A program made the translations under genes and the position numbers. Source: Pseudomonas sp. B6002 (GTDB lineage Bacteria > Pseudomonadota > Gammaproteobacteria > Pseudomonadales > Pseudomonadaceae). From it: DNA of 64,000 nt. The stretch covers positions 124,001 through 188,000 of the forward strand of contig NZ_JACAOY010000010.1 of the NCBI RefSeq assembly GCF_013385985.1. Direction: 5' to 3'. Positions within the stretch are counted from its first letter, which is position 1, and each line of letters begins with the position of its first letter. Under the pieces are notes generated by a model. It was not told where the DNA came from and made no database searches. It worked only from the letters and a program-made list of their open reading frames with translations. Shown here one piece after another: positions 2,998 through 59,960 of the stretch.

Positions 2998-3052
2998 ACG
3001 ACAACCTGCCGAATGATCGGCCGGAAATGGACATCCAATAGAGAGCTAAGCC

Positions 3053-15314: not shown

Positions 15315-15731
15315 ATGAAGACTTGCGGCATCGAAATCAAAGGCAGCGAAGCCATCATCGCTGTCGCTTCCCTCGACAACGGGGCGCTGACTCATGTCGC
15401 CTTGGCCACCAAGAAAATCGCTCTGGAAGACGACGATGAAGCGGCCAACGTCAAAGCCTTCGCCACCCAGGTGAAGGCGTTTGTGCAGGACAACGCCATT
15501 GAGCGAATCGCCATCAAGAAGCGCAGCAAGAAAGGCGAATTTGCCGGGGGCCCGACCACGTTCAAGATTGAAGGGGTGTTCCAGTTGCTGGACGGTGTGG
15601 AGGTGACGCTGCTGTCGCCGCAGACCATTAATGCCCAGAACAAGAAGCACAACTTTGATTTGCCGGCGACGCTGAACAAGTACCAGCATGAAGCCTACAA
15701 AGCGGCGTGTTCGGCCCTGCTAAAAAAATAA
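15315..15731 (+). CDS. DUF3010 family protein
   Basis: This cytoplasmic protein of 138 aa starts MKTCGIEIKGSEAIIAVASL and carries the DUF3010 pattern, including ERIAIKKRSKKGEFAGGPTT and LLSPQTINAQNKKH. The N-terminal GIEIKGSEAIIAV strand followed by the acidic linker resembles an RNase H/actin-like first strand. No function is established for the family. It follows the LprI-like gene by 41 bp with ACAAGG upstream. Confidence 0.8.
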   Translation: MKTCGIEIKGSEAIIAVASLDNGALTHVALATKKIALEDDDEAANVKAFATQVKAFVQDNAIERIAIKKRSKKGEFAGGPTTFKIEGVFQLLDGVEVTLLSPQTINAQNKKHNFDLPATLNKYQHEAYKAACSALLKK

Positions 15732-52511: not shown

Positions 52512-53177
52512 ATGATCGACCTCTCTACCTGGAACCTGAGCATTCCGGTCGGCTCGCCACCGGCGACCATCGACACCCCGAAACTGCTCAGCGGCTTCAA
52601 AGACCAGTATTTCCAGGCCGAAGGCAGCAACGTGCAATTCTGGACCCCGGTGACCGGCAGCCGCACCGAGAACGCCATCTACCCCCGCAGTGAACTGCGC
52701 GAGACCTACGCCGATGGGCGCCTGCGCAACTGGACCTACCCGGATGCCGACAACTTCCTGCGCGCCACCTTGGCGGTCAATCAAGTGCCCTCCACCGGCA
52801 AGGTCGTCATTGGCCAGATCCATGCCTATGACAGCCAGAAGCCGCTGATCAAATTGGAGTACCAGTTCAAGGAAAAGACCCAGACCGGCAACATCGTCGC
52901 CAAAGTGCGCATGCGCCCGGATGAGGACGAAGGGCGGGTGATCATCGTGGCGTCGAATGTGCCGCTGGAGAAAAGCTTCACTTACGTGATCAACCTGAAC
53001 AAAGCCGGACTGCTCAGTGTGTATGCCGCCGACGGGGAGTGGAATGAGCGTATTGGTGCAGCCTGGGGCGCCAAGCAGTTGTATTTCAAGGCAGGGGTGT
53101 ATGTGCAGGACAACAGCGGGAACAGCAAGGAGGGGGCAAGGGTGACGTTTGCTAAGTTGGATATTGATCACGAGTGA
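52512..53177 (+). CDS. Polysaccharide lyase family 7 alginate lyase
   Basis: This 221-aa beta-jelly-roll lyase should cleave alginate by beta-elimination. All three PL7 blocks are visible: RSELRE (59-64), QIH (102-104) and YFKAGVYVQ (191-199). There is no signal peptide, so it may be cytoplasmic or leave by a non-Sec route; the single-domain PL7 enzymes of other pseudomonads are similar in size. It sits at the edge of an AT-rich island of unknown genes. Confidence 0.9.
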   Translation: MIDLSTWNLSIPVGSPPATIDTPKLLSGFKDQYFQAEGSNVQFWTPVTGSRTENAIYPRSELRETYADGRLRNWTYPDADNFLRATLAVNQVPSTGKVVIGQIHAYDSQKPLIKLEYQFKEKTQTGNIVAKVRMRPDEDEGRVIIVASNVPLEKSFTYVINLNKAGLLSVYAADGEWNERIGAAWGAKQLYFKAGVYVQDNSGNSKEGARVTFAKLDIDHE

Positions 53178-53730: not shown

Positions 53731-53748
53731 ACTGTGAATGTTGACAGT
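53731..53748. promoter_or_regulatory. Dyad copy 1 (ACTGTGAA-TG-TTGACAGT)
   Basis: This 18-bp near-perfect inverted repeat follows an A-rich run and is followed by TACACA. It lies 116 bp ahead of the first (broken) paralogue. Two further copies occur at 54641 and 58385. Confidence 0.6.
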
Positions 53749-53864: not shown

Positions 53865-54263
53865 ATGCCTATTCCCTTTATTGCACCCCGCCCTTCTGTG
53901 AGTGGTGCCTCACCTACCGCGCCCCCATACCTATACGTGACCCCAAAGGCAGCTGCTTCGCGGTGCTGATTACGGTCCCTACAGGAAGCGTGAGCAGCTT
54001 CCAGGCGGGCGACATTATGGAGGGGGTCGTTGCAACAAACTGGAAATGGCCCAAACGGTCTGTATCCACGGCAAAATATTCGACGTCAAGGTTTCAGTCA
54101 AAACTTTGTCAATTCACTCATTAACGGTCAGGCCTTAATAGGTCATGAATTTTGTGGCACCGTCATAAAAAACACAAACTTTGTGATGAAAATTACAATC
54201 ACTGACCCCAGCGGAATAGTGCTTAAATTACTAACCACTAATTTAACAGTTAGATTTTTCTGA
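53865..54263 (+). pseudogene. Broken first paralogue of the small-protein array
   Basis: The start MPIPFIAPRPSV resembles the other array members. Two frameshifts interrupt the gene. The first comes after YLYVTPK, with the downstream frame continuing GSCFAVLITVPTGSVSSFQA. The second falls near GVV, after which LQQTGNGPNGLYPRQN runs to NTNFVMKITITDPSG and a stop. Joined, it would be about 133 residues. Sequencing error is possible, but two independent shifts favour real decay. Confidence 0.6.
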
Positions 54264-54640
54264 GCACATTAATTATTAAGGCATTCACCCTCCAAACGTA
54301 GTTGAACTGCCAATGAACTTTGACGCCGGGAAACTTATCACTCGCTACCCATTATAAAATTTAACTATCCCCGCAGAACCTTTCTCAAGAAATCGCGCGT
54401 GCCTCCCTCCTCACGGGGTTTGCGGAACATACGCCGCTGGCCGAGGCGACATCAAAGTTAAAACGGCAGTGAGCGTTAAGTAAACCAACGATTTCAGGAA
54501 CCGCTCGGGTGTAGCTGCCAGGAAAGAAACATCCAAACGACACAGATATTTTATCTCGAGTTGGATAAACCTTGACCGAAACAAACGTTAGAGTGTTTTA
54601 GCCTATCTCGAATAATGTCTATAGCGAAAAACCATAAAAA
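54264..54640. other. Intergenic region before the second unit
   Basis: This AT-rich gap of 377 bp holds no intact gene. A fragment reading ARASLLTGFAEHTPLAEATS (about 54398-54470) may be a remnant of a lost gene. The second dyad starts at 54641. Confidence 0.4.
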
Positions 54641-54658
54641 ACTGTCAACTTTGACAGT
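54641..54658. promoter_or_regulatory. Dyad copy 2 (ACTGTCAA-CT-TTGACAGT)
   Basis: This is a perfect 8-bp inverted repeat with a 2-bp centre, 59 bp before the 157-aa gene. Its core fits CTG-N10-CAG, the spacing of LexA boxes, although the centre is not the usual TA alternation. Confidence 0.65.
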
Positions 54659-54716
54659 GCCAAGCGTAAAAAAAAGACGGACCATTAAGACTCTTACATT
54701 CCTTGAGGCGTTCAAA

Positions 54717-55190
54717 ATGGCTACCTTCAACAATATATTCTGGAACCCACCTACAGTAGTGACAGTTCCCGATTGCTGCTCAGTAACAACACCACCTCCT
54801 CCACCTGCCCCAAACCTGACCATTGGCACTCGCCCGGCCATTAACATGAATGTATTCCCGCGGGTTGGAGACTACGTAGTTGCCCAAGCGTTGGGCACTG
54901 GAGGCGTAGCAACAGAAATTTCGGGGTTTGTGGATAACTATTCAGCCGATGGGCAAACGACAGTTATCGCTGATGGTGAAACAGGCACTAAAACCAATGT
55001 AAGCACTCGATTCGTGACCTTTTGGGGACCCGTGCAGACCGTTAATCAATACCCCGGTCAGAACATCGGCTTCCAAAACAACTTCAACGGTCCAGTCTAC
55101 GGCGTCAACCAGTACTCACAAGGGGGATATTACAGACGCCAATTTATGGCATCAACACGCGCCTTAAAAGGCTCAGTACTGACTGAATGA
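54717..55190 (+). CDS. Unrecognised 157-aa protein with proline stretch
   Basis: The protein begins MATFNNIFWNPPTVVTV, then has a Cys pair (PDCCSV), a run of prolines (TPPPPPAPN) and a Gly/Asn/Tyr-rich C-terminal half (YPGQNIGFQNNFNGPVYGVN). There is no signal peptide or membrane helix. The composition suggests an extended or self-associating structural protein. GAGG lies about 10 nt before the ATG, and dyad 2 precedes it. I know no family for it. It seems to be the first gene of a unit including the 101-aa gene. Confidence 0.65.
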   Translation: MATFNNIFWNPPTVVTVPDCCSVTTPPPPPAPNLTIGTRPAINMNVFPRVGDYVVAQALGTGGVATEISGFVDNYSADGQTTVIADGETGTKTNVSTRFVTFWGPVQTVNQYPGQNIGFQNNFNGPVYGVNQYSQGGYYRRQFMASTRALKGSVLTE

Positions 55191-55247
55191 CATAAATGCG
55201 CCGCCGTGCCGCGAGAAGCTTTAACACACTATGAAAGGAGCAACACC

Positions 55248-55553
55248 ATGTCCATCATCGTTGAATACGTGGTACAGATATTAGAAGTAGACGTCGGAAA
55301 AGACTTTGATTTCTTGAGTGCGGGGACCATTTACAAAAATGCCACTCTCGTCGCATCAAATTATGATGCTTCCATGGAGGACATTATAATGACTATTAGC
55401 TCAGTTAATGGCATTGAAGCGATTGCTTATAAAGACACCGTACCACTCATCCCGATGGTTGCCGCTCAGGCAATTTCGGTTCCGTCGCCAACACAGCAAA
55501 TAAGCACCGAAAAAATTTCTTATATGATCGGCTCCAGAAAAGCAGTCCAATAA
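55248..55553 (+). CDS. Unrecognised 101-aa protein
   Basis: MSIIVEYVVQILEVDVGKDF starts eight bases after a strong AAAGGAG site. The sequence alternates beta-like strands (TIYKNATLVASNY, NGIEAIAYKDTVPLIPMV) without signal or membrane segments. Its pattern Y-x-x-A-x-L-V followed by EAI weakly resembles the N-terminal half of the 219-aa neighbour, so the two may be distant paralogues. Function is unknown. Confidence 0.6.
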   Translation: MSIIVEYVVQILEVDVGKDFDFLSAGTIYKNATLVASNYDASMEDIIMTISSVNGIEAIAYKDTVPLIPMVAAQAISVPSPTQQISTEKISYMIGSRKAVQ

Positions 55554-55579
55554 CATCTAAATCATCGTTAGTTCTTGCC

Positions 55580-55613
55580 GTCAGGCGTGGTCATAATACA
55601 TGACCACCCTGAC
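55580..55613 (+). terminator. Hairpin between the 101-aa and 219-aa genes
   Basis: GTCAGGCGTGGTCA pairs with TGACCACCCTGAC around a 7-nt loop (13 bp, one bulge), followed by TTTAAAAA. It could be a partial terminator or an mRNA end stabiliser inside the cluster. Confidence 0.55.
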
Positions 55614-55648
55614 TTTAAAAACTCGCGAATAAATAGAGCGCATTCGAC

Positions 55649-56308
55649 ATGAATATAATTAACCTATTTCAACAATATATCGTGATTTCGCCCGAGGATA
55701 TATTTTCGTTTGATGCCGACGACCAATTTTACCAACATGCGCAGCTTGTGTCAGTGCATCAAGGGGCAGCCTTAATAAAAACGCAGCATGGCGATCAAGA
55801 AGCAATATCCGTGAATAGCATGAGGTTGGTAATACGGCTTATCCCAGAATCATCTTCCCTGCTACGCAACTCACCGCCTGTAAAAAAAAAGCCTCACACA
55901 GCAACGTCTTTAGGCTTCCCCCTTGACGGTTTAGGTATTCGCTCTTACTCCTCTCAAGGAGCTAGTTATGCAGAGCCACTATTTCAGGGTGTGGTACCGG
56001 TCTCGAATTATACGGAACCACAATATCAAGGCGTCGTGCCTAATGTTCAATACCCAGCGTCAGCCCCCCCTGGGACTAGCTCGCCGGTGAGCTCGGTCAT
56101 CGTAGCAACTATCAATGTCCCAGTTTATGTGGAAATAGTAACTCATCAGGATGGCAGTCAAAATATTAACATATACGATCAAGCCAGCTACCCATCCATT
56201 GGCTCAGTGCCCTCATCCCCGACTCAAGGGGTAGACATGGCCTTTTTTCTTGCCGAAGAAGAAAGGCGTGAAAAGGAAAGATTGGCTTTCATCATGGATT
56301 ACTCCTGA
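55649..56308 (+). CDS. Unrecognised 219-aa protein with repeats
   Basis: The N-terminal ~70 residues (MNIINLFQQYIVISPEDIFS ... AISVNSMRLVIRLIPE) look folded. A low-complexity middle carries two copies of EP-x-(F/Y)-QGVVP (EPLFQGVVPV, EPQYQGVVPN). A beta-like segment (VIVATINVPVYVEIVTHQDG) and a charged helix (FFLAEEERREKERLAF) end the protein. No known domain, signal peptide or membrane helix is seen. It lies just upstream of the four intact small paralogues. Confidence 0.6.
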   Translation: MNIINLFQQYIVISPEDIFSFDADDQFYQHAQLVSVHQGAALIKTQHGDQEAISVNSMRLVIRLIPESSSLLRNSPPVKKKPHTATSLGFPLDGLGIRSYSSQGASYAEPLFQGVVPVSNYTEPQYQGVVPNVQYPASAPPGTSSPVSSVIVATINVPVYVEIVTHQDGSQNINIYDQASYPSIGSVPSSPTQGVDMAFFLAEEERREKERLAFIMDYS

Positions 56309-56337
56309 CTTATAAGACTTATACTAAGGTGGCTATT

Positions 56338-56742
56338 ATGCCGTTACCCATTATCATGTCTGGCCCTGATTTTCCCGGTGTGACTAAACCGAAAAGTGGC
56401 CCTTACAAAATCCCGCTCACCCCATCCAATCAGATAATGAATATTGTAGTAACACCCGCTGTCTATAGTGCCTTCGCACCAGCCGATCAATGGCGAGTAT
56501 CCGCTCAGCGTAATGGCAGTAACCCTGCAGGCGCTTACCCGATCAATATCATTTCACTGGAAAGTATTGCACAGCAAAAAATGGATACTGCAATAAATAC
56601 CCCACCCCATTATTTTATCTTAAATGTCAGTATGTTAAAAACGCTCACAAAAAACCTAACCTATACCTTAAGAATCACACTCACAGACAACAACGGCGTG
56701 ATAAAGGCATTGGCGCCAAACACATCAATCATGATTATTTGA
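56338..56742 (+). CDS. Array paralogue 2 (134 aa), unknown function
   Basis: The sequence starts MPLPIIMSGPDFPGVTKPKS and ends KNLTYTLRITLTDNNGVIKA plus a short tail. AAGGTGG lies seven bases before the ATG. It shares with its neighbours an MP-x-P start, a central Q-R-N/x-G ... G-x-Y-P block (QRNGSNPAGAYPINI) and a C-terminal N-x-x-Y-x-L-R-I-x-x-T-D signature. The strand pattern suggests a single Ig-like beta-sandwich module. There is no signal peptide. Confidence 0.65.
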   Translation: MPLPIIMSGPDFPGVTKPKSGPYKIPLTPSNQIMNIVVTPAVYSAFAPADQWRVSAQRNGSNPAGAYPINIISLESIAQQKMDTAINTPPHYFILNVSMLKTLTKNLTYTLRITLTDNNGVIKALAPNTSIMII

Positions 56743-56799
56743 AATACTACGGTGTTTATCTAAATCAGATACATATAGGAAACTCAGGAAGCTTTTACC

Positions 56800-57198
56800 A
56801 TGCCAACCATACCGCTGATAATGTCAAGACCCACATTCTTGAATAAGCCTAGCCCCATCTCTGGACCGCTTCGCGTGCAGCCAAATACCGCATGCGAAGT
56901 GGTAAAAGCGCCGGCAAATCCAGCGTTACTTGCGGGTCTAACCGTTGGGGATAGGATAACCATCACTCTACAAAGAAATGGCATCAGCTCAAGCGGGCCG
57001 AACCCTGTGAACACCCTCTTTACTGAGGTGTTATCGGCGCAACGAATCCAACTCGCAACTACACAGAAATTTATAGGAATGGAAATCTGCTCATTCAGAT
57101 CTCTTCTGGCCAATACCGTCTACACACTCAGAATAAATATCACTGACGCGGGAGGTCTCATCAAAGCGATATCAGCCAACCTGACGCTCACCTTGTGA
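56800..57198 (+). CDS. Array paralogue 3 (132 aa), unknown function
   Basis: MPTIPLIMSRPTFLNKPSP opens the protein. The middle GLTVGDRITITLQRNGISSS and the end NTVYTLRINITDAGGLIKAI match the array consensus. CAGGAAG precedes the ATG. The V-G-D-x-I-x-(I/V) strand resembles single modules of Ig-like repeats in large pseudomonad surface proteins; this resemblance was judged by eye. No secretion signal is visible. Confidence 0.65.
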   Translation: MPTIPLIMSRPTFLNKPSPISGPLRVQPNTACEVVKAPANPALLAGLTVGDRITITLQRNGISSSGPNPVNTLFTEVLSAQRIQLATTQKFIGMEICSFRSLLANTVYTLRINITDAGGLIKAISANLTLTL

Positions 57199-57279
57199 TG
57201 CGCATGGGCTCAAACATCGGCTGAATCTCACATCAAAGCTTATAAGCATTGAGTTTAAATATTCATCAGGGAGACTGTG

Positions 57280-57678
57280 ATGCCACTGCCACTGATTGGA
57301 CCAAAGCCTTACTTTTACAATGTCAACAATCCAGCCCCTGCACCTTATGCAGTATCGATCCCCCAAAACAGCATCATTCTTGTTTGGCCCTTGACCACGG
57401 CAATTATCCAAATATTGCTGGCAGGTAATGTGGCCACGGTCACACTACAAAAATCGGGCAATGGCCCGGCAGGGCCTTATCCACGACAGCAGGCGCACCG
57501 ACGGGTATTAGATCAGGTCAGTATTAATCATCTACAAAGTACAAAAGCGTTAATGCTTGAAATGCGTGACCTAGGCCCCTTCAGATTAGGAACCAATCAC
57601 GTACTACGGATCGAAATAACTGATTCAGCTAACCAAGTTTTTGCTCTATCAACCAATCTCACGGTCGTATTTAACTAA
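57280..57678 (+). CDS. Array paralogue 4 (132 aa), unknown function
   Basis: MPLPLIGPKPYFYNVNNPAP is preceded by AGGGAGA at good spacing; a GTG one codon upstream is in frame. The block LQKSGNGPAGPYPRQQAHRR is closest to the broken copy 1, and the C-terminus TNHVLRIEITDSANQVFALS follows the consensus. A short hairpin (57682-57701) separates it from the next copy. No function can be assigned. Confidence 0.65.
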   Translation: MPLPLIGPKPYFYNVNNPAPAPYAVSIPQNSIILVWPLTTAIIQILLAGNVATVTLQKSGNGPAGPYPRQQAHRRVLDQVSINHLQSTKALMLEMRDLGPFRLGTNHVLRIEITDSANQVFALSTNLTVVFN

Positions 57679-57681
57679 ACT

Positions 57682-57701
57682 GCTGCAGCTTACGCTGCAG
57701 C
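57682..57701 (+). other. Hairpin between array copies 4 and 5
   Basis: GCTGCAGC-TTAC-GCTGCAGC forms a perfect 8-bp stem with a 4-nt loop and no T-tract. It is probably an intercistronic RNA structure. Confidence 0.5.
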
Positions 57702-57732
57702 GACCTACCGGCCTCTCACCGAGAACAATCCA

Positions 57733-58140
57733 ATGCCAGCCCCCTACCTTACCTCTCAGGCAACATTTACACCTACGCCACCTGCTTCGACAGGGCCTAA
57801 ATTGATACAGTTGAACACTCCCGGCAGTTGTTTCATGGGGCAAGTCCCCGTTCCGGCAGGCAGTACAAGCAGCCTAACTGCAGGCAACATTAAAGTTGCA
57901 CAACTCCGGCAAGCGGGGACCACTAATTGGATCGACCTCGCGACATTGCCCATTTACGTTAATGGGGAAACCTCACACACCGCTACGTCTCCAAATATAA
58001 TTCAAGTAGAAATGTGCTCCTCCGAAGTAGACATTAATTTCAAAAAAAACATCACTTACACTTTCAGAATTCTCGTCAGAGACCCGACGGGACAATCGAT
58101 CATTGTCTTGGGCACTAACACTAATATTCGTCGCGTCTAA
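57733..58140 (+). CDS. Array paralogue 5 (135 aa), unknown function
   Basis: This is the most diverged member. It begins MPAPYLTSQATFTPTPPAS and has TPGSCFMGQVPVPAGSTSSL, which matches the region after the first frameshift of copy 1 (GSCFAVLITVPTGS). The C-terminus KNITYTFRILVRDPTGQS keeps the signature. It ends the array, followed by a long G tract and dyad 3. Confidence 0.65.
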   Translation: MPAPYLTSQATFTPTPPASTGPKLIQLNTPGSCFMGQVPVPAGSTSSLTAGNIKVAQLRQAGTTNWIDLATLPIYVNGETSHTATSPNIIQVEMCSSEVDINFKKNITYTFRILVRDPTGQSIIVLGTNTNIRRV

Positions 58141-58179
58141 TATGATCTCACACAGAAGTGAGGCTCTACCGGCAGAATA

Positions 58180-58204
58180 GGGGGGGGGGGGGCGCGCCCC
58201 CCCC
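58180..58204. repeat. Homopolymer G13-CGCG-C8 hairpin
   Basis: Thirteen G residues run into CGCG and eight C residues, forming a GC-only hairpin within AT-rich DNA. Tracts this long slip during replication; they can also be sequencing artefacts. Confidence 0.7.
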
Positions 58205-58384
58205 AACACATTACGTTGCAAACTCCGACGCTGTTGTCGTCCATTATTTATCGCGGTGAGCGACGAGTATTTTTCTCTTGAACCAAGGATTTGCGCGATT
58301 AAATCACAACTACTCCTATTCACGTACTCAACTGGCTTCTACCTAGATCAAAAACGCATAATCCTTATTATAAATAAATAGAAA

Positions 58385-58402
58385 ACTGTAATTTCTGACA
58401 GT
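58385..58402. promoter_or_regulatory. Dyad copy 3 (ACTGTAAT-TT-CTGACAGT)
   Basis: This third copy of the inverted repeat is followed by TACACA as in copy 1, 80 bp before the small secreted gene. Confidence 0.55.
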
Positions 58403-58482
58403 TACACAGCATCCGGGCAAGTCTATATTGTCACTTAGACACCTCACTTAATAGAAATCCAATTAAAGGGAAGGAGTTCAAA

Positions 58483-58789
58483 ATGTACAAAACTCACATC
58501 ACACACAACTCGCCGGCCTGATAACGATTTCGCTCATATTAATCACGCCTCAAGTATTTGCCACGTGCAATGCAAACTCTGTAAGTTATGCCGTTGCAAA
58601 CAATCTGTCGCCGACAAACTCGCCTGCGTTTCAGTCAACACTTAATAACTACATGAGTCAGGCAGGCGCCGGTCAAGTGCGCGCCATTTCAGAGTCTGGC
58701 ATGACAACTCAAGAGTATTTGCAAGATGCCTTGTGGGTAAACTATAACAGCACTACGAGCAAAATTACTGGATTTGGTTGCGGGCATTA
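58483..58789 (+). pseudogene. Small secreted protein, frameshifted at codon 3-4
   Basis: An excellent GGGAAGGAG site precedes ATG TAC AAA, which soon stops. One extra A in the AAAA run would open a frame of about 100 residues: MYKNSHHTQLAGLITISLIL, a signal peptide ending TPQVFA, then a mature part starting TCNANSVSYAVANNLSPTNS and ending GFGCGH, with two Cys. Either the gene is off by a 1-bp deletion or the base is a sequencing error. Family unknown. Dyad 3 lies upstream. Confidence 0.55.
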
Positions 58790-58851
58790 AGTTAAACATC
58801 ACGACAGAGCTGAAGCTGTTTTAGTTTTTAATCCAGTTGTTTAATGCCCAC

Positions 58852-58895: not shown

Positions 58896-59960
58896 TTAAT
58901 TCACCTTAGCGTTCAACTCACCTTTGAGGTAACGCTGATACATCGCTTCCAACGAGATCGGCTTGATCTTCGACGCATTGCCCGCAGTTCCAAACGCTTC
59001 ATAACGTGCGATACACACGTCACGCATCGCCGTCACAGTCGCACCAAAGAACTTACGCGGATCGAACTCGCTCGGGTTGGTGGCCATCAGGCGACGCATG
59101 GCGCCGGTGGACGCCAGGCGCAGGTCGGTGTCGATGTTGACCTTGCGCACGCCGTACTTGATGCCTTCGACGATTTCTTCAACCGGTACGCCGTAGGTTT
59201 CTTTGATGTCGCCGCCGTACTGGTTGATGATCGCCAGCCACTCTTGCGGGACCGAGGAAGAACCGTGCATCACCAAGTGGGTGTTGGGGATGCGTTTGTG
59301 GATTTCCTTGATGCGGTCGATGGCCAGCACGTCGCCGGTAGGCGGCTTGGTGAACTTGTAGGCGCCGTGGCTGGTGCCGATGGCGATGGCCAGGGCGTCG
59401 ACTTGGGTCTTTTTCACGAAGTCAGCGGCTTCTTCCGGGTCGGTCAGCATTTGGCTGTGATCCAGCACGCCTTCGGCGCCGATGCCGTCTTCTTCACCGG
59501 CCATGCCGGTTTCCAGGGAACCCAGGCAGCCCAGCTCGCCTTCAACCGACACGCCGCAGGCGTGGGCCATGGCGACAGTTTGTTGGGTCACGCGTACGTT
59601 GTACTCGTAGTCGGTTGGGGTCTTGCCGTCTTCGCCGAGGGAGCCGTCCATCATGACCGAGCTGAAGCCCAGTTGGATGGAGCGCTGGCACACGTCAGGG
59701 CTGGTGCCGTGGTCCTGGTGCATGCACACCGGGATGTGCGGGAATTCTTCGATGGCCGCGAGGATCAGGTGACGCAGGAACGGCGCGCCGGCGTATTTGC
59801 GGGCACCGGCCGAAGCCTGGACGATCACAGGGGAGTCGGTCTTGTCAGCGGCTTCCATGATGGCGCGCATCTGCTCAAGGTTGTTGACGTTAAAGGCTGG
59901 GACGCCGTAGCCGAACTCGGCTGCGTGGTCCAGCATTTGACGCATGCTGATAAGTGCCAT
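58896..59960 (-). CDS. fba: Fructose-bisphosphate aldolase, class II
   Basis: This 354-aa zinc aldolase splits fructose-1,6-bisphosphate into DHAP and GAP. Zinc and catalytic motifs are [31 protein letters not shown] and [12 protein letters not shown]. The length and sequence are of the Calvin-cycle-type subgroup usual in Pseudomonas, where its main use is gluconeogenesis. It is the last gene of the tkt-epd-pgk cluster. Confidence 0.97.

What the first reader, a model, noticed from the sequence alone, without database searches (positions are those of the whole stretch)
53865..58140. Tandem array of five small paralogues of unknown family in an AT-rich island
Five genes of about 133 codons lie in the cluster at 53865, 56338, 56800, 57280 and 57733. 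All share an MP-x-P start, a central Q-x-x-G ... G-x-Y-P block and a C-terminal Y-x-(L/F)-R-I-x-(I/L)-x-D signature, yet are strongly diverged. None has a signal peptide, and each resembles a single Ig-like module freed from a large adhesin. They are accompanied by three orphan proteins and flanked by the same regulatory dyad. Local expansion by duplication with one decayed copy suggests diversifying selection, for example in a structural assembly, a toxin/immunity set or an interaction with a host or phage.
Basis: partly seen in the sequence, partly recalled or inferred. Interest (0 to 1): 0.8.

Follow-up and report, generated by a model that had tools for sequence, protein, structure and literature searches.

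The report
Lux-box operon of small Ig-like proteins
A rare Pseudomonas operon encodes four related small immunoglobulin-like proteins that match no curated family searched here; it carries a promoter switch resembling a quorum-sensing box, which also precedes a lectin-tipped protein gene in the same genome and toxin-like genes in a related one, so its regulation can be tested directly.

Summary
The array is real: four intact paralogues (132-135 aa, about 25-30% identical) and a fifth copy broken by in-frame stops, in a 44-48% GC island between an alginate lyase gene and fbaA. No convincing Pfam, NCBIfam, PHROG, PDB, phage or plasmid relative was found. Of 399 genus genomes searched, 3 have strong matches. 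In one (G365) three copies and three companions keep site and order. AlphaFold (pLDDT 88) gives an FnIII/Ig-like sandwich. NG86 dN/dS is about 0.2 where measurable, so 'diversifying selection' is not supported. The 'regulatory dyad' is the best lead. CTGTNANNNNTNACAG occurs 15, 21 and 27 times in three genomes against 1, 1 and 0 for the reversed pattern; 33 of 57 non-hairpin sites lie 15-150 nt before an ORF, and a -10-like signal lies where a class II lux box predicts. Genes behind it include large Ig-like proteins (two shown to end in a galactose-lectin-like domain), a XaxAB-like pair and a VRP1/Tc-like gene (both in G382), and a thioredoxin-like gene. Best reading: LuxR-type-regulated, AidA-like soluble interaction proteins. 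Regulation is fairly well supported in silico; biochemical function is inferred.

The parts
53732..53747 (+). lux-box-like dyad 1 (CTGTGAATGTTGACAG), 117 nt before the decayed copy
53865..54263 (+). decayed fifth copy of the array family, two in-frame stops; C-terminal half readable from 54030
54642..54657 (+). lux-box-like dyad 2 (CTGTCAACTTTGACAG), 59 nt before the first gene of the operon
54717..55190 (+). companion a, 157 aa, proline-rich stretch near the start and N/G/Y-rich end; 54.5% identical to its G365 orthologue
55248..55553 (+). companion b, 101 aa, acidic; 49.5% identical to its G365 orthologue
55649..56308 (+). companion c, 219 aa, acidic, low-complexity tail; 53.7% identical to its G365 orthologue
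56338..56742 (+). array copy 1, 134 aa; 71.6% identical to its G365 orthologue; the copy modelled
56800..57198 (+). array copy 2, 132 aa; 67.4% identical to its G365 orthologue
57280..57678 (+). array copy 3, 132 aa; 60.6% identical to its G365 orthologue
57733..58140 (+). array copy 4, 135 aa, most diverged; no one-to-one orthologue seen in G365
58179..58205 (.). G/C-run hairpin after the last array gene, possible transcript end (inference)
   Evidence: read by eye
58386..58401 (+). lux-box-like dyad 3 (CTGTAATTTCTGACAG) with TATATT at 58424-58429
58484..58790 (+). decayed (frameshifted) gene for a small protein with a secretion-signal-like start, behind dyad 3
   Evidence: read by eye
52512..53177 (+). 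left landmark: alginate lyase gene (Alginate_lyase2); same neighbour in G365 and G382
58896..59960 (-). right landmark: fbaA (fructose-bisphosphate aldolase; name recalled from the sequence); same neighbour in G365

Best explanation
The island is an operon (54717-58140) of three companion proteins and four small FnIII/Ig-like proteins, switched on from an upstream dyad that is a class II lux box, by one of the genome's LuxR-type regulators, for which no LuxI partner was found (LuxR solos). The proteins lack export signals. They are outputs of a fast-changing host- or neighbour-interaction regulon that, over three genomes, also includes lectin-tipped Ig-like proteins, toxin-like proteins and an autotransporter. 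They most likely act like the LuxR-controlled AidA proteins or LecA/LecB: made in quantity in the cytoplasm, assembled with each other or with the acidic companions, and released by lysis or an unknown route to bind a host or competitor surface. Shown: the family, the conserved gene order and site in a second genome, the genome-wide excess and placement of the dyad, the other genes behind it. Predicted by model: the fold. Inferred: one transcript, the LuxR identity of the regulator, assembly, release and binding.
For: Box excess over the reversed pattern: 15 vs 1, 21 vs 1 and 27 vs 0. Geometry CTGT-N8-ACAG is that of the Vibrio fischeri lux box (recalled). On 34 gene-oriented sites a -10-like A..T pair starts at +30.5/+31.5 from the dyad centre in 15 of 34 (mean over offsets 3.9), with no peak at that distance on the opposite side; this puts the dyad at about -42.5/-43.5. 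Related gene sets keep the box across genomes. Three LuxR proteins with an autoinducer-binding domain in the own genome; two types shared by all three genomes. Same gene order in G365 behind one box. Fold: pLDDT 87.6, pTM 0.77; Foldseek TM 0.53/0.66 to an FnIII domain, E 2.4e-3. Array proteins net basic in 10 of 10; companions net acidic in 6 of 8. Other genes behind boxes: lectin-tipped protein, XaxAB-like pair, VRP1/Tc-like gene.
Against: No evidence that any LuxR protein binds the dyad, and no exact dyad lies beside the luxR genes in the roughly 3.4-kb loci scanned. 24 of 57 non-hairpin boxes have no ORF of 90 aa or more starting at 15-150 nt by the simple ORF set used, and 6 of 63 boxes are hairpin-like, as terminators would be. 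The opposite side of the boxes also has strong columns: T in 22 of 34 at +21.5 and an A..T pair in 12 of 34 at +15.5, unexplained. The window operon's own -10 is poor (GACCATTA at the expected place). In the window alone three boxes are not exceptional at one mismatch. Foldseek finds no match better than E 1.1e-3, and Ig/FnIII folds do not tell function. No lectin, PixA/AidA or toxin family matches the array proteins. The charge pattern is only suggestive.
Confidence: 0.5

Rival explanations
1. Structural assembly: the basic Ig-like proteins and acidic companions co-assemble in the cytoplasm into an inclusion, fibre or crystal, and the several copies are different subunits of it.
For: Opposite net charges, 10 of 10 basic against 6 of 8 acidic over three genomes; stable copy identity and order in two genomes; PixA-domain proteins are LuxR-linked in other bacteria (passages of PMC10143992); low-complexity companion tails.
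Against: G382 has a different set of copies with fewer companions, one without an evident start; no match to a known inclusion-protein family; charge is weak evidence.
Confidence: 0.25
2. Polymorphic toxin/immunity or competition set under diversifying selection.
For: Strong divergence between paralogues, a decayed copy, faster evolution than neighbours, XaxAB-like genes in the same site in G382.
Against: dN/dS 0.18-0.22 by NG86 and 0.20-0.43 by YN00, not above 1; no toxin family match for the array; no pairing of genes; orthologues keep order.
Confidence: 0.1
3. The dyad is not a lux box but the site of another dimeric regulator (for example a TetR- or MarR-type repressor).
For: No LuxR protein is tied to this exact sequence in the passages read; the Burkholderia cep box consensus given in PMC1766932, CTGTAAAAGTTACCAGTT, fits only in part.
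Against: Exact lux-box spacing, and placement about 42-43 nt before the inferred start, where an activator sits over the -35; LuxR solos in all three genomes.
Confidence: 0.25
4. Phage, tailocin or plasmid cargo.
For: AT-rich, rare island between chromosomal genes; one weak PHROG match of copy 4, E 0.005, to a family of unknown function.
Against: No phage or IMG/VR relative of copy 3 and only E 0.07-0.2 plasmid matches of copy 2; no tRNA found in the window; same chromosomal site in G365 and G382.
Confidence: 0.05

Closest known systems
AidA / PixA-domain proteins under LuxR-type regulators (Burkholderia, Ralstonia, Photorhabdus)
   Same: LuxR-type control through lux-box-like sites, two aidA genes beside solR in Ralstonia, suggested role in host colonisation (passages of PMC1766932 and PMC10143992); a table line of PMC1766932 calls AidA intracellular.
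   Different: No match to a PixA model; longer gene set with companions; not beside its regulator gene; in Photorhabdus the LuxR solo represses aidA, whereas placement here suggests activation.
LecA/LecB-type soluble lectins of Pseudomonas aeruginosa
   Same: Small beta-sandwich proteins without signal peptide under LuxR-type control (recalled).
   Different: No lectin family match for the array; sugar binding untested.
FnIII/Ig-like domains
   Same: Predicted fold: TM 0.53 by model length and 0.66 by target length to 8fn8_B.
   Different: Single free domains of 130-135 aa; best Foldseek E only 1.1e-3.
Large Ig-like proteins without evident signal peptide behind the same box in the same genome (C9 and C29 loci)
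   Same: Same promoter element; similarity to the C9 group in hhalign reached by 0 or 1 of 150 shuffled controls.
   Different: About 650-1250 aa multi-domain chains; the C9 protein and its G365 relative end in a galactose-lectin-like domain, two C29 proteins have no PDB match; hhalign probability only 0.7-1.4%.
LuxR solos of fluorescent pseudomonads, subgroup A (fpr / 23S rRNA methyltransferase neighbours) and subgroup C (pip neighbours)
   Same: The own genome has one luxR beside an fpr-like gene and one between pip-like genes (neighbours named by eye), as in passages of PMC8546723.
   Different: Those passages report no promoter among the flanking genes that depended on the subgroup A protein tested; this island would be a candidate target elsewhere in the genome.

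Membership tests
PixA/AidA family | match to the PixA domain model | tested here: not met
   No such match among Pfam hits up to E 1 for the window proteins or E 10 for 10 members (HMMER filters drop most weak matches).
PixA/AidA family | control by a LuxR-type regulator | tested here: inconclusive
   lux-box geometry and placement; no binding data.
Lux box | dyad CTGT-N8-ACAG (recalled as the Vibrio fischeri geometry) | tested here: met
Lux box | position near -42.5 over the -35 of an activated promoter (recalled) | tested here: inconclusive
   As a group supported: 15 of 34 sites against a mean of 3.9 over offsets; exact at dyad 3, poor at dyad 2; no mapped start sites.
Lux box | bound by a LuxR protein | not testable with these tools
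   needs gel shift or ChIP
Ig/FnIII-like fold | beta-sandwich resembling solved FnIII/Ig domains | tested here: met
   AlphaFold models and Foldseek; by prediction only, no match at E <= 0.001.
Toxin/immunity set | toxin domain paired with an antidote gene | tested here: not met
   No family match for the array; no alternating pairs.
Diversifying paralogue array | dN/dS above 1 | tested here: not met
   NG86 0.18-0.22 and YN00 0.20-0.43 gene-wide for 3 of 6 orthologue pairs; dS not estimable for the other 3. Site-level tests not done.
Phage or tailocin module | phage relatives or phage neighbours | tested here: not met
   only one array copy was used in each

The most novel reading that the evidence does not exclude
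Fluorescent pseudomonads carry an undescribed LuxR-solo regulon built on CTGTNANNNNTNACAG class II boxes, which recruits AT-rich orphan genes, toxin-like genes and lectin-tipped Ig proteins; the array is a new family of free Ig-like modules, descended from a module of those large proteins, that assemble with acidic companions into a released host-binding complex.
Probability: 0.3. Interest if true: 0.8.

Novelty: new variant of a known kind. Interest (0 to 1): 0.58.

Why it matters
One LuxR-solo subgroup occurs in almost all fluorescent Pseudomonas species analysed in PMC8546723, yet in the passages I read no promoter tested next to such a solo depended on it. A defined box with 57 non-hairpin sites in three genomes gives a concrete candidate regulon and a simple test. 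The array adds a protein family that no curated library used here recognises, beside toxin-like and lectin-like genes with the same promoter element, so it may show how these bacteria act on hosts or rivals.

Tried and rejected
Phage, plasmid and viral origin: not supported, with one copy as query in each of 11, 20 and 53; weak leftovers are a PHROG match at E 0.005 and plasmid matches at E 0.07-0.2. Named relatives in the 84,980-species collection: none by two scans, which reach only close relatives; one scan of IMG/VR with the 148-aa G365 neighbour also found none. Weak genus hits G230 and G350: regions fetched; no exact box and no island seen there; G240 not checked. G040, G041, G043 and G322 (E 0.03-0.1) not followed. 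G082, G267 and G287 (E 0.006-0.009, companion a, 4 of 299 with the own genome) not followed. A LuxI search found none in the own genome, but no control genome rang either, so absence is not shown; LuxI was not sought in G365 or G382. A box search within the luxR loci found no exact site, only three with 2 mismatches. Homology to the second group of large Ig-like proteins (A5): none. IPD072Aa (PMC10057879, start of abstract seen in the listing) was considered as a small Pseudomonas insecticidal orphan; its sequence was not compared. Paper searches for a Pseudomonas LuxR box of this sequence or a regulon of this kind; I saw none in the listings and in the passages read. No paper was read whole.
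Full report
WHAT IS THERE. Between an alginate lyase gene and fbaA there is an island of 44-48% GC in a region of about 61%. It holds four intact paralogues, at 56338, 56800, 57280 and 57733, and a fifth copy at 53865 with two in-frame stops. The BLAST pairs reported have E-values from 1e-20 to 3e-4, and a profile finds exactly these five places in the own genome. Three companions precede the intact copies: 54717 (157 aa), 55248 (101 aa) and 55649 (219 aa).

NO KNOWN FAMILY. The array proteins have no meaningful match in Pfam, NCBIfam or the PDB by sequence (best E 0.56). The best PHROG match is E 0.005, copy 4 to a family of unknown function. Copy 3 has no phage or IMG/VR relative. Copy 2 has plasmid matches only at E 0.07-0.2, annotated as lytic transglycosylases. 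Two scans of the 84,980-species collection found no relative. In the genus, 1 of 299 genomes matched first, the own one. With more genomes, 6 of 399 matched at E <= 0.01: three strong ones (the own genome, G365, G382) and three weak ones. With a ten-sequence profile 3 of 369 matched at E <= 0.001.

RELATIVES AT THE SAME SITE. In G365 the same place between the alginate lyase gene and fbaA holds one dyad, then orthologues of all three companions and of array copies 1, 2 and 3 in the same order, then a 148-aa protein of another family and a divergent array protein. Identities are 71.6, 67.4 and 60.6% for the array copies and 49.5-54.5% for the companions, against 93.2% for the alginate lyase and 99.4% for fbaA. 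A tree joins each orthologue pair with support 0.955-1.000. In G382 the site is rearranged: four dyads, two array proteins, one intact and one probably broken relative of the 148-aa protein, partial alginate lyase and fbaA copies (these by eye), and a pair matching alpha-xenorhabdolysin subunits B (51.1 bits, cut-off 40) and A (118.7 bits, just below its cut-off of 125). So three copies and their order are older than the split from G365, not a recent local burst.

SELECTION. NG86 dN/dS between the own genome and G365 is 0.184 (55649), 0.216 (56338) and 0.198 (56800); YN00 gives 0.238, 0.431 and 0.203. dS could not be estimated for the other three pairs. Five neighbour genes give 0.004-0.085 by NG86. 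The genes evolve fast under purifying selection; gene-wide diversifying selection is not seen.

FOLD. With 10 sequences, four of them from G365 and two from G382, it rose to 87.6 and 0.77: a beta-sandwich with short helices. Foldseek then lists mostly Ig and FnIII domains, best E 1.1e-3, with TM 0.53 by query and 0.66 by target length to the FN domain of PTPRZ. None of the 18 array and companion proteins of three genomes shows a clear signal peptide or membrane helix by hydropathy. Array proteins are net basic in 10 of 10 (+1 to +6); companions are net acidic in 6 of 8 (-5 to -9), the two exceptions being the 54717 type.

THE DYAD IS THE KEY. ACTGTN6TGACAGT-like sites led to the pattern CTGTNANNNNTNACAG. 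It has 15 exact places in the own genome against 1 for the reversed pattern, 21 against 1 in G365 and 27 against 0 in G382. In the window alone the three sites are less striking: with one mismatch allowed, 9 of 100 shuffles had three or more. All 63 distinct sites were examined: 6 are hairpin-like and could be terminators. Of the other 57, 33 have an ORF of 90 aa or more starting 15-150 nt downstream, against 1213 of 11200 random positions in the same loci; these random positions also fall inside genes, so the comparison is lenient. I oriented 34 sites by their gene: 27 of the 33 automatically (the other 6 were not used, having ORFs on both sides or lying too near an end) and 7 by hand, among them the three in this island. 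On these 34, an A..T pair fitting a -10 hexamer starts 30.5 or 31.5 nt from the dyad centre in 15 of 34 sites (mean over offsets 3.9); with one site per orthologue set it is 12 of 26 (mean 3.1). The opposite side has no peak at that distance, but it has one of its own, 12 of 34 at +15.5, and a T in 22 of 34 at +21.5, which I cannot explain. The gene-side signal places the dyad at about -42.5 to -43.5, the class II position of a lux box (geometry and position recalled). Dyad 3 has TATATT at exactly this place; dyad 2, which heads the operon, has only a poor match.

WHAT ELSE SITS BEHIND THE BOX. Sets of related genes keep the box in more than one of the three genomes: large proteins of two groups, a thioredoxin-like protein (all three genomes), a small cold-shock-like protein (by BLAST in G365 and G382, by eye also in the own genome), an autotransporter (151-215 nt from the box) and the first gene of this island. 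In the own genome the large protein on C9 ends in a domain similar to a galactose-binding lectin of known structure, 6yf6 (E 6.8e-13, residues 751-893), as does its G365 relative (E 6.8e-9); two C29 proteins have no PDB match. In G382 the box also precedes a gene with a VRP1 domain (132 bits, cut-off 22; the fetched stretch ends inside the gene) and, divergently, a protein with bacterial Ig-like domains. In 6 of the 9 loci listed the first gene behind the box has 46-49% GC. A short companion-like domain heads another gene behind a box in G382 (L111, E 6e-7 to the G382 island companion).

WHICH REGULATOR. The own genome has three LuxR proteins with an autoinducer-binding domain. One lies between pip-like genes and is 92-96% identical in all three genomes. 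One lies beside an fpr-like gene and is only 50-64% identical between them. A third type is in two of the three. No LuxI was found in the own genome, but that search had no positive control. PMC8546723 (passages) describes the fpr-flanked subgroup as present in almost all fluorescent pseudomonads analysed, with no dependent promoter found among its neighbours in the strain tested. I cannot tell which of these, if any, binds the box.

ARE THE ARRAY PROTEINS FREED MODULES? hhalign of the array against the C9-type group (A6, six proteins) scores 23.4 with 0 of 150 shuffled controls reaching it. Against 13 extracted modules it scores 14.7 with 1 of 150 reaching it. Against the other group (A5, four proteins) it scores 11.8 with 63 of 150 reaching it. 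The reported probabilities are 0.7-1.4%, and shuffling breaks the strand pattern, so this is a lead, not a result. HMMER alone shows nothing significant.

MECHANISM AND LIMITS. Best reading: a LuxR-type regulator turns on the operon together with other interaction genes; the proteins accumulate in the cytoplasm, may assemble with the acidic companions, and act outside after release. The nearest parallel is the LuxR-linked AidA proteins (passages of PMC1766932 and PMC10143992), although in Photorhabdus the LuxR solo represses aidA. Membership in the PixA/AidA family was tested and not met; the comparison is of how it works only. Results against: no binding data, a weak -10 in the operon's own promoter, an unexplained signal on the other side of the boxes, 24 of 57 boxes without a close ORF by the simple rule, and no biochemical function indicated by the fold.

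Noticed in passing
L064 12672-15413 (G382), box at 15495: XaxAB-like gene pair and a 132-aa gene behind a lux-box-like site in the same chromosomal island.
   Followed up: partly
L115 3068-6016 (G382), box at 3001: VRP1-domain (Tc-toxin-like) gene 52 nt from a box, with a divergent protein carrying bacterial Ig-like domains.
   Followed up: partly
L052 11876-14554 (own genome C9): 893-aa protein without evident signal peptide behind a box, after a large non-ribosomal peptide synthetase gene (named from its sequence), ending in a galactose-lectin-like domain.
   Followed up: yes
L034 6948-17162 (own genome C29): Three more large proteins without evident signal peptide, each with a box at or shortly before its start.
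   Followed up: partly
L031, L128, L129: The fpr-flanked LuxR solo is only 50-64% identical between genomes whose pip-flanked solo is 92-96% identical.
   Followed up: partly
L050, L103, L125: Thioredoxin-like gene with a box 28-72 nt upstream in all three genomes.
   Followed up: no
box-centred alignment of 34 sites: On the side away from the gene, T in 22 of 34 sites at 21.5 nt from the dyad centre; meaning unknown.
   Followed up: no
L064 7026-7613, 11274-12394 (G382): Partial extra copies of the alginate lyase and fbaA genes around the island, as if the site had been duplicated.
   Followed up: no
58179-58205: Long G run followed by a C run forming a strong hairpin after the last array gene.
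   Followed up: no
58484-58790: Decayed gene for a small protein with a secretion-signal-like start behind dyad 3.
   Followed up: no
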